A stretch of 49,084 nt of DNA, from assembly GCA_023954155.1 (NCBI GenBank), contig JAMLIO010000011.1:1-49084 (forward strand), in the 5' to 3' direction. Position 1 is the stretch's first letter; every line of letters begins with the position of its first letter. Positions 17,274-40,791 of this stretch are shown here, one piece after another. A model generated the notes under the pieces. That model saw nothing but the letters and a program-made list of their open reading frames with translations, did not search any database and was not told where the DNA came from. The position numbers were made by a program, and so were the translations under genes. The stretch is from Pseudobdellovibrionaceae bacterium. Its GTDB lineage: Bacteria > Bdellovibrionota > Bdellovibrionia > Bdellovibrionales > UBA1609.

Positions 17274-17447
17274 TTGGCGAGGAGTTAGACTCTCTGTTTA
17301 GGTCGTTCCCTCACCGCGCGAGCGATGCGTATCCGACCTGCGTTAGCCTGTGGGACCGTTAGGTCCCAGAGGTTGATGCAGGCCGAAGACGCTTCGCACC
17401 CGCTGGTTCTGGGAACGACCTAAACAGAGAGTCTAACTCCTCGCCAA
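17274..17447 (+). repeat. Foldback element, copy 1
   Basis: Perfect 37-bp inverted arms (17274-17310 and 17411-17447) enclose a 100-nt core. The core folds further. The basal stem is GCGATGCGT (17322-17330) with ACGCTTCGC (17389-17397). An internal loop ATCCGAC/GCCGAAG follows, then a 12-bp stem (17338-17349 with 17370-17381, wobble pairs included) and an apical stem TGGGACC-GTTA-GGTCCCA (17351-17368). The core is shared with the copy at 40583-40791, while the arms are unrelated to those of that copy. It sits between divergent genes for the EVE protein and fumarase. Confidence 0.85.
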
Positions 17448-39198: not shown

Positions 39199-40593
39199 AT
39201 GAAAGAAGTTCAAGCCAGCTCTACATTTAAAAACGATATGGCAAAGTCCGTGTATTTTTCCTCTTTAGGATGCTCTAAAAATCTTGTGGATTCACAGGTC
39301 ATGTTGGGGCACATGGGACTTGCGGGCTATGAGCTTAAGACCGAACCCTCAGAGGCCCAGGTCATTGTGGTCAACACCTGTTCTTTTATCGAAGAGGCGC
39401 GTAAAGAGTCGATCCGAGAAATTTTAGATTTAGCTGAAAACAAAGAAACAGGAAATTGTGAAGTGCTTGTGGTGTCAGGCTGTATGGCTCAAATGTACGC
39501 TAAAGACATCGAAGCTGAAATGCCCGAAGTAGACCTGATCATCGGTACGGGCGAGTACAACAAAATCACCCAGTACCTTAATGCCATCGAAGAAGGACGC
39601 ATTGAAAAGAAGTCTTTTGTGGAAGTGCCCAAGTACATCCACACCGAGTTTGACCCTCGTCTGCAAACTACGCCTGAGTATACGGCATGGTTAAAAGTGT
39701 CAGAGGGCTGTGATCGCAAATGCACGTTTTGTATTATTCCTCAATTGCGTGGAGGTTTAAGAAGTCGAAGTGTCGAGTCTCTAGTGGCAGAAACCAAAAA
39801 CTTAGTGGCAAGAGGGGTGAAAGAGATCAATGTGATCTCCCAAGACCTGTCTAGCTACGGCATGGACTTAAGCGAAGATAAAAAATCCCACCAACTTTAT
39901 GAGCTTTTAGATGGATTGGAAAATATTGAGGGCTTGCAGTGGGTGAGATTATTTTACTATTACCCCGACGAGCTTTCTGATGAGGTGATCGAAAAGATCG
40001 CAGCTTCTAAAAAGATTTGTCACTACTTGGATATGCCTATCCAGCACTTTTCTGATTTAACACTCAGAAGAATGAATCGAAAAATTAAAGGCGAACTTAT
40101 TTTTGACCGCGTAAAACGCCTAAGAGAAAGAATTCCTGATATTGTGATTCGCACCTCTGTCATCGTAGGTTTTCCAGGTGAAACCGAAGAGGACTTTCAA
40201 AAGCTGTATCAGGGCATTGCCGAATGTCAGTTTGACCACTTGGGTGTTTTTAAATATTCCGACGAAGAGGGCGCGCCTGCCTATCGTCTGGGTGGCAAAG
40301 TAGATCAAGACACCATCGACAGACGGTTTACTGAAATCTATGAACTACAAAAAGCAATAGTTACGCAAAAAAATGCCAAATGGTTAGGCAAAAAACTGCA
40401 AGTTCTTGTTGAAGGGTATCACCCTGAGACAGATTTACTGATCAACGCCCGCCACTATGGCCAAGCCCCCGACATAGATGGCCAAGTCATCATCAACGAC
40501 ACCGAGGGCATGATCTTAAAACAAGGCGACCTCGTCACTGTAGAAATCACCGATGTCATGGAGTACGACCTTATCGCCCGCATCCTCCCTTAA
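39199..40593 (+). CDS. rimO: Ribosomal protein S12 methylthiotransferase
   Basis: A 464-residue radical-SAM methylthiotransferase that modifies an aspartate of ribosomal protein S12. The N-terminal cluster ligands are Cys25 (GCSKNLVDSQ), Cys61 (NTCSFI) and Cys95 (SGCMAQ). The radical-SAM motif is CDRKCTFC at 171-178, and a TRAM-like domain ends the protein. No ribosome-binding site precedes either ATG candidate (39199 or 39238). A TATAGT box at 39180-39185 lies so close that the transcript could be nearly leaderless. The stop codon is inside the left arm of a foldback element. Confidence 0.95.
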   Translation: MKEVQASSTFKNDMAKSVYFSSLGCSKNLVDSQVMLGHMGLAGYELKTEPSEAQVIVVNTCSFIEEARKESIREILDLAENKETGNCEVLVVSGCMAQMYAKDIEAEMPEVDLIIGTGEYNKITQYLNAIEEGRIEKKSFVEVPKYIHTEFDPRLQTTPEYTAWLKVSEGCDRKCTFCIIPQLRGGLRSRSVESLVAETKNLVARGVKEINVISQDLSSYGMDLSEDKKSHQLYELLDGLENIEGLQWVRLFYYYPDELSDEVIEKIAASKKICHYLDMPIQHFSDLTLRRMNRKIKGELIFDRVKRLRERIPDIVIRTSVIVGFPGETEEDFQKLYQGIAECQFDHLGVFKYSDEEGAPAYRLGGKVDQDTIDRRFTEIYELQKAIVTQKNAKWLGKKLQVLVEGYHPETDLLINARHYGQAPDIDGQVIINDTEGMILKQGDLVTVEITDVMEYDLIARILP

Positions 40594-40791
40594 TTTGGAG
40601 TTCTGATTTTATCTTGTTATTCCCTTCTAAAAGGCCCAGCAAAGACGGGTGCAAAGCGTCTTCGGCACGCGTTACCCTATGGGACCTTTCGGCCCCACAG
40701 GCCAACGCATGTCGGATACGCATTGCTCACTTTTGAGGTCCTTTTAGAAGGGAATAACAAGATAAAATCAGAACTCCAAATTAAGGGAGGA
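40583..40791 (-). repeat. Foldback element, copy 2
   Basis: Perfect 52-bp inverted arms (40583-40634 and 40740-40791) enclose a 105-nt core, which in reverse complement matches the core of copy 1 along most of its length. Conserved blocks are ATGCGTATCCGAC, CCTGTGGG, AGGTCCCA and GCCGAAGACGCTT. The core stems are kept by changes on both sides: the basal stem is GCAATGCGT with ACGCTTTGC, and the apical loop is GAAA instead of GTTA. The arms have no similarity to those of copy 1. The left arm includes the last three codons and stop of rimO, so the right arm is an inverted copy of that sequence. Confidence 0.88.

What the first reader, a model, noticed from the sequence alone, without database searches (positions are those of the whole stretch)
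17274..17447. Foldback element family with conserved folded core and non-conserved perfect arms
Copies at 17274-17447 and 40583-40791 share a core of about 85 nt that folds into a basal stem, an identical internal loop (ATCCGAC opposite GCCGAAG), a middle stem and a capped apical stem. Several base pairs differ between copies on both strands at once (for example G-C to A-T in the basal stem), so structure seems selected. The arms are 37 and 52 bp, perfectly complementary within a copy and unrelated between copies. Known repeat transposons keep their ends and vary inside. This is the reverse. It may be a structured RNA, a single-stranded DNA hairpin mobilised by a trans-acting enzyme, or an element whose spread duplicates flanking DNA in inverted orientation.
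Basis: partly seen in the sequence, partly recalled or inferred. Interest (0 to 1): 0.78.

Follow-up and report, generated by a model that had tools for sequence, protein, structure and literature searches.

The report
Hairpin elements that mirror flanking DNA
Bacteria of the order Bdellovibrionales carry dozens of scattered DNA hairpins whose folded centre is shared between copies while their long, perfectly paired arms are private to each copy and in several cases contain a mirror-image copy of the end of the neighbouring gene, a combination I could not match to any known mobile element.

Summary
Both foldbacks are exact (37 and 52 bp perfect arms; simulated windows reach 11-13 bp). The window's genome holds about 23 copies of this core. 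A covariance model finds about 145 copies in 13 of 141 genomes of the order (Bdellovibrionales) and none elsewhere in the phylum. The core covaries strongly, with invariant loops. Two further core families (B, C) with the same build occur in the same genome, and a fourth in a related genus. In family B the cores are nearly identical while the arms are little more alike than shuffled sequence. In six copies one arm contains the 3' end of the adjacent gene (peptide permease DppC, M23 peptidase, a reductase, two orthologous outer-membrane proteins, RimO in this window), and the other arm is its exact mirror copy. But family-A arms are partly inherited in some genomes, copies sit at gene 3' ends, no mobilising enzyme or target-site duplication was found, and no transcript could be tested. 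Best model: a mobile structured core whose arms are created and kept perfect by hairpin-templated copying (snap-back or template switching). Mechanism inferred; anatomy shown.

The parts
17274..17310 (+). left arm of copy 1 (37 bp, perfect)
17311..17410 (+). structured core of copy 1 (family A), read GCGTATCCGAC-first on the + strand
   Evidence: CM hit 17302-17420, E 3e-28
17327..17337 (+). conserved 5' core motif GCGTATCCGAC
17382..17392 (+). conserved 3' core motif GCCGAAGACGC
17411..17447 (+). right arm of copy 1 (perfect complement of the left arm)
40583..40634 (+). left arm of copy 2 (52 bp, perfect); its first 11 nt are the last codons and stop of the RimO-like gene
40635..40739 (-). 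structured core of copy 2 (family A) on the minus strand, with imperfect basal stem
   Evidence: CM hit 40628-40744 minus, E 1e-30
40740..40791 (+). right arm of copy 2; its last 11 nt mirror the end of the RimO-like gene
39199..40593 (+). RimO-like gene (ribosomal protein S12 methylthiotransferase) whose 3' end lies in the left arm of copy 2

Best explanation
These are non-autonomous dispersed (mobile) foldback elements. SHOWN: the shared unit is a folded core of about 60-130 nt with invariant internal loops; the arms are long, near-perfect inverted repeats, largely private to the copy, and their outer part can be an inverted copy of adjacent host DNA, including conserved codons of the neighbouring gene. 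INFERRED: the core enters a site just 3' of a gene. Once there, the core's imperfect stem lets one strand fold back, so that a 3' end (at insertion, or later during replication) copies the flank on one side and places its reverse complement on the other side. Repeated template switching keeps the arms perfect and can lengthen them, while the core's conserved loops are held by selection for core function (mobilisation or a structural role). A trans-acting enzyme for insertion is presumed but not identified.
For: (1) Dispersed family: about 23 copies in this genome and about 145 in 13 genomes of 3 families of one order, none in the rest of the phylum. (2) Presence/absence within one genus: G049 has about 30 or more copies, G048 more than 10, G047 and G018 none; a G018 syntenic spacer lacks the element. 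(3) Private arms: 15 family-B copies share a nearly identical core, but arms 8-40 nt out are 34% identical and align only slightly better than shuffled sequence. (4) Host DNA in arms, exactly mirrored: DppC AFDPKMKK* (27 nt; aligns with the C-terminus of DppC from solved structures), M23 peptidase PKNYILD* (relatives end PVDPMNYILDE* and similar), a reductase KVRYEF*, and orthologous OMPs in two genera ending GFKLEM* and GLRLEF*, each mirrored by its own element. RimO in the window: 11 nt. (5) Arms stay near perfect while diverging: in the G049 set between-copy arm divergence is about 0.40, within-copy mismatch 0.045, between-copy core divergence 0.06. (6) G.T pairs are about 1% of arm pairs against 26 of 393 cells in the core, which suggests arm pairing is set by DNA copying rather than by RNA stability. 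(7) Precedent for template switching creating and maintaining hairpin stems: PMC8794818.
Against: In G049 and G026 the arms are homologous between copies, so not every arm is freshly copied flank. In G026 two perfect arm segments are separated by a conserved unpaired loop, which one long copying tract starting at the core would erase. Either side of the core can be the donor, so copying is not tied to core orientation. No consistent target-site duplication was seen, no enzyme was found, and no base-exact empty site was available (closest relatives about 75% identical). Native coding DNA in arms shows inverted duplication but not whether it happened at insertion or afterwards.
Confidence: 0.55

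Rival explanations
1. Ordinary MITE-like foldback transposon: the arms are terminal inverted repeats inherited with the element, which diverge fast and are kept complementary by conversion between arms.
For: Arms homologous among more than 20 copies in G049 with a shared end resembling CCCAAATTTCTG; shared inner arms in G000 subfamilies; homologous arms in G026.
Against: Family B has nearly identical cores but unrelated arms; conserved host codons lie inside arms in six copies; arm ends are only weakly shared in G000.
Confidence: 0.2
2. A multicopy structured RNA or RNA-level 3' UTR element: selection for a long double-stranded RNA keeps the arms paired.
For: Strong covariation in the core; G.T exceeds A.C on the GCGTATCCG-first strand (34 against 8 without G004; 39 against 20 with it); location at gene 3' ends.
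Against: Stems of 40-100 bp with almost no mismatch or wobble exceed what RNA stability can be expected to select for; in G049 the wobble-tolerant strand is antisense to the adjacent gene; no Rfam family matches; no expression evidence.
Confidence: 0.12
3. REP/REPIN-type element moved as single-stranded DNA by a Y1 (RAYT or IS200-like) transposase.
For: Same genomic niche as REPs: within about 20 nt of gene 3' ends, mostly convergent or co-directional (compare PMC3733652); strand-asymmetric folding; conserved irregularities in the stem.
Against: No Y1_Tnp gene in the window's genome with 23 copies; Y1 genes are also common in genomes without elements; size and architecture differ; no E. coli match.
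Confidence: 0.1
4. Independent palindrome growth: ordinary short inverted repeats at gene ends extended by template switching, with the cores merely common hairpin seeds.
For: Template switching can extend arms (PMC8794818; PMC3820800 abstract).
Against: Cores are homologous, long and dispersed between unrelated loci in many genera; a chance seed would not share 60-130 nt.
Confidence: 0.03

Closest known systems
REP / BIME / REPIN (GTAG- and CGTC-tagged repeats)
   Same: dispersed intergenic palindromes next to gene 3' ends, non-autonomous, folded with conserved irregularities
   Different: REPs are 20-40 nt with one shared stem; here 170-330 nt with a structured core and private 25-100 bp arms, host codons mirrored in the arms, and no Y1 transposase in the window's genome
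ERIC / MITE-type palindromic repeats
   Same: about 100-200 bp palindromic, non-coding, multicopy
   Different: those keep shared ends; here the ends are mostly private and the centre is shared; no match in E. coli genomes
Quasipalindrome template-switch mutation (PMC8794818, PMC7202029)
   Same: process that makes inverted copies of nearby DNA and perfects stems
   Different: known as a mutation process at single sites, not as the way dispersed elements obtain their arms
Foldback-primed inverted duplication (PMC10622511)
   Same: a folded 3' end copies flank into an inverted duplication
   Different: described for chromosome breaks in yeast and cancers, without a conserved dispersed core

Membership tests
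MITE / TIR transposon | terminal inverted repeats shared between copies | tested here: not met
   family B arms unrelated with nearly identical cores; partly met in G049 and G026 for family A
MITE / TIR transposon | fixed-length target-site duplication | tested here: inconclusive
   one 6-nt candidate (ATACTA) at a G048 copy (L205); not seen consistently when flanks were read by eye
REP / RAYT | 20-40 nt palindrome with GTAG/CGTC tag | tested here: not met
   elements are 170-330 nt; no such tag seen at the foot of the stem
REP / RAYT | Y1 transposase in the genome | tested here: not met
   PF01797: none in G000; present in many genomes without elements
REP / RAYT | location at gene 3' ends | tested here: met
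   convergent 36, divergent 11, against 14 and 32 in background spacers, Fisher p 1e-5; 61% of 3' ends within 25 nt
ERIC | sequence similarity to ERIC (abundant in E. coli) | tested here: not met
   no match in 20,395 E. coli records
Known structured RNA (Rfam) | match to a curated family | tested here: not met
   no credible match to any element
Functional structured RNA | covariation in helices | tested here: met
   94.9% of cells paired, 15 of 22 pairs compensated, 0 of 500 shuffles reach this
Functional structured RNA | stable transcript | not testable with these tools
   no RNA-seq available
Hairpin-templated flank copying | one arm is native host DNA and the other its mirror copy | tested here: met
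   six copies with gene ends in the arm; nativeness supported by homologues for DppC and the M23 peptidase and by the orthologous OMP pair

The most novel reading that the evidence does not exclude
A class of mobile DNA in which only a folded core is transmitted: at or after each insertion the core acts as a snap-back primer that copies host flank into an inverted arm, so every copy builds its own private perfect arms. Several different core families in one bacterial order share this life cycle.
Probability: 0.4. Interest if true: 0.88.

Novelty: new variant of a known kind. Interest (0 to 1): 0.76.

Why it matters
Mobile elements normally keep their ends and vary inside. Here the centre is kept and the ends are rebuilt, partly from host genes. 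If confirmed, this shows a natural process that copies gene ends in inverted orientation at dozens of sites per genome, gives a natural record of template switching at hairpins, and points to an unidentified activity that moves folded cores. It also makes the old question of how long perfect stems stay perfect testable with one genome's worth of parallel cases.

Tried and rejected
Rfam: no family. Phage, plasmid and E. coli similarity: no real match (the Mycobacterium phage hit is 29 nt). Viral contigs: 40 pattern hits, none with arms. RAYT/Y1 mobiliser: absent from the window's genome. Shared cargo between paired inverted copies: the genes between them are unrelated. Conserved position: only two shared sites between genera were clear, each with the core in opposite orientation; a RecG/Mfd coincidence is paralogy. 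Exact empty sites: relatives are too diverged for base-exact junctions. A strand-specific snap-back at insertion with a fixed donor side was considered; the donor side varies. SbcD absence as a cause: absent from all carriers, but also from most non-carriers. Assembly or amplification artefact rejected: the same core occurs in independently made MAGs. SerA (C4:43800) was dropped as a case of host DNA in an arm, because the frame seems to run out of the gene into the arm. Literature searches found no description of such elements; the library is partial.

Full report
WHAT WAS CLAIMED AND WHETHER IT IS THERE. Both are exact: 37/37 bp at 17274-17310/17411-17447 and 52/52 bp at 40583-40634/40740-40791. 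Twelve simulated windows with matched dinucleotide frequencies gave at most 13 bp. The cores align with the conserved loop ATCCGAC/GCCGAAG; copy 2 is on the minus strand.

A DISPERSED FAMILY. The core has about 23 copies in the window's genome G000 (2.44 Mb). Twelve are short-core copies; most of the rest carry an extra apical hairpin of about 50-70 nt in the tip. A model from the short cores (R1) found copies in nine other genomes of the family, one of them a single weak hit (G052) that looks false. A cross-genus model (R2, 18 sequences) finds about 145 copies in 13 of 141 genomes of the order, in three families, and nothing in the rest of the phylum (369 genomes). A pattern scan of 84,980 species hit Bdellovibrionales MAGs in 43 of 47 stretches; the other four (Microbacterium, Gluconacetobacter, Bryobacterales, Sphingomonas) look like chance. 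Presence is patchy: within one genus G049 and G048 carry many copies, G047 and G018 none of this core. At one locus the G018 spacer between the orthologous genes is 87 nt where G049 has about 417 nt with the element.

STRUCTURE. Across genera 94.9% of helix cells pair and 15 of 22 pairs show compensated changes; none of 500 shuffles reaches this, and slid controls fall to 20-47% paired. The 3x3 internal loop (ATC opposite AAG) and its flanking pairs are nearly invariant. Pairs in the core drift through G.U on the GCGTATCCG-first strand (26 of 393 cells, counted; the structure was predicted on that strand, which biases this count). In the arms G.T exceeds A.C on the same strand (39:20; 34:8 without G004, whose arm alignments are poor). 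So that strand appears to be the one whose folding matters; whether as RNA or as single-stranded DNA is open.

ARMS. Arms stay near perfect although they diverge strongly. In the G049 set, arms differ between copies by about 40%, arms within a copy by 4.5%, cores between copies by 6%. In G026 ten copies have proximal arms of about 32-46 bp that are almost without mismatch but differ between copies, then a conserved unpaired loop, then a second perfect arm segment in most copies. Stems this long and this perfect are unlikely to be held by RNA stability alone, because a single mismatch in 50-80 bp is close to neutral; copying between arms at the DNA level is the likelier cause (inference; precedent PMC8794818). 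G.T makes up only about 1% of arm pairs.

PRIVATE ARMS AND HOST DNA IN ARMS. A survey of 849 kb of G000 found 32 foldbacks with perfect arms of 20 bp or more: 13 with this core (family A), 14 with a second core (B), 3 with a third (C), 2 with none of these. The 15 aligned family-B copies share cores that are identical over most of their length, while their arms 8-40 nt outwards are 34% identical and align only slightly better than shuffled sequence (mean local score 6.3 against 5.5). So these arms were not simply inherited with the core. Direct evidence of origin comes from copies whose arm runs into a gene. In the family-C copy at C4:92339-92566 the outer 27 nt encode AFDPKMKK-stop, the C-terminus of a peptide permease that aligns with the end of DppC of known structure; the far arm carries the exact mirror copy. 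In the family-A copy at C6:108669-108921 the arm encodes PKNYILD-stop of an M23 peptidase; readable relatives end PVDPMNYILDE-stop and similar. A reductase end (KVRYEF-stop) and two orthologous outer-membrane proteins in G017 and G022 (GFKLEM-stop, GLRLEF-stop) are mirrored by their own elements. In the window, the last 11 nt of the RimO-like gene are mirrored by copy 2. One arm is therefore native host DNA in its outer part and the other an inverted copy of it. The SerA-like case (C4:43800) looks different: the reading frame seems to run from the gene into the arm, so it is not counted.

LOCATION. Copies lie at gene 3' ends: convergent 36, co-directional 40, divergent 11, against 14, 42 and 32 in other spacers of the same loci (Fisher for convergent against divergent, p 1e-5); 61% of neighbouring 3' ends are within 25 nt of the arm. 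Genes were called by a simple ORF rule, so the numbers are approximate. REPs have the same niche (PMC3733652). This may reflect insertion preference or selection against promoter damage. In one carrier (G127) several copies abut what look like intrinsic terminators. Copy 1 in the window lies between divergent ORFs and is one of the exceptions.

MECHANISM. The best-supported account is a mobile core plus hairpin-templated copying of flank. Whether copying happens at insertion (snap-back priming by the core) or afterwards (template switching that extends the palindrome) is not settled. The donor side varies relative to core orientation, which favours later growth or later flipping of the core. 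The G026 loop between two arm segments argues against a single long tract from the core. Inherited inner arms in some lineages mean that arms are a mix of inherited inner and copied outer parts. All families that carry the element lack a recognisable SbcD (TIGR00619), the subunit of the nuclease that cuts long hairpins; in the order it is seen only in family f10, which has no elements. This fits a permissive setting but is not specific, since most non-carriers lack it too.

KNOWN FAMILIES. It does not meet the defining features of REP/RAYT (size, tag, Y1 gene), of MITEs (shared ends, in family B), of ERIC (no E. coli match) or of any Rfam family. It resembles REPs in location and works like a quasipalindrome template-switch product with a conserved mobile core. 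Literature searches found no description, but the library is partial.

LIMITS. No transcript data, no base-exact empty site, no mobiliser, MAG assemblies, a simple ORF rule for gene context, and copies in one genome share descent, so counts of compensated changes are not independent events. Mismatch-type counts were not corrected for shared ancestry.

Noticed in passing
G000 C1, C2, C4, C6 (for example L339 16100-16332 = C2:56100-56332): Second foldback family B: core ACTCAAAATGCTCAGACAGTGACGTTTGGC..GCCAAGCCGAACTCGCATTTCGACC, at least 14 copies in 849 kb, cores nearly identical, arms unrelated and up to 78 bp perfect, often starting ATATATA next to the core.
   Followed up: partly
G000 C4:92339-92566, C6:76651-76816, C6:67009-67583: Third foldback family C with core ACGCCCCTCCTGGGCTCTGCCAGCATTTGCCC; one copy mirrors the end of a DppC-like gene.
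   Followed up: partly
L296/L298 and L302-L315 (G047): Fourth foldback family (core TACTCAAACAGCC..GGCAGCACCGCTCGCC..GCGCACCCGC), about 15 copies with variable arms, in a genome that lacks the family-A core; one copy sits at a locus syntenic to an element-bearing G049 locus.
   Followed up: partly
G000 L022 (C5:222927-223092): A family-A copy with intact core but no paired arms; its right flank is paralogous to that of L003, whose arms are perfect. Looks like recombination between two hairpins.
   Followed up: no
order-wide: SbcD (TIGR00619) is found only in family f10 of the order and in none of the element carriers.
   Followed up: partly
L044 (G017) and L047/L123 (G022); L083 (G004) and L103 (G049): Two syntenic spacers carry the element in two different genera, each time with the core in opposite orientation.
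   Followed up: partly
L276, L279, L280, L282 (G127): Right ends of several copies run AAAAATAAAAAA or similar directly into what looks like an intrinsic terminator hairpin of the facing gene.
   Followed up: no
arms of the G000 foldbacks: Compositional skew: 5' arms are T/G-rich (T 0.41, G 0.19, C 0.15, A 0.25), so 3' arms are A/C-rich.
   Followed up: no
G000 family A arms, about 12-20 nt from the core: Motif AAGGTATAAT or close variants kept in many copies whose other arm positions differ.
   Followed up: no
L322 14958-15141 (G000 C1): 6S RNA gene (Rfam RF00013).
   Followed up: no
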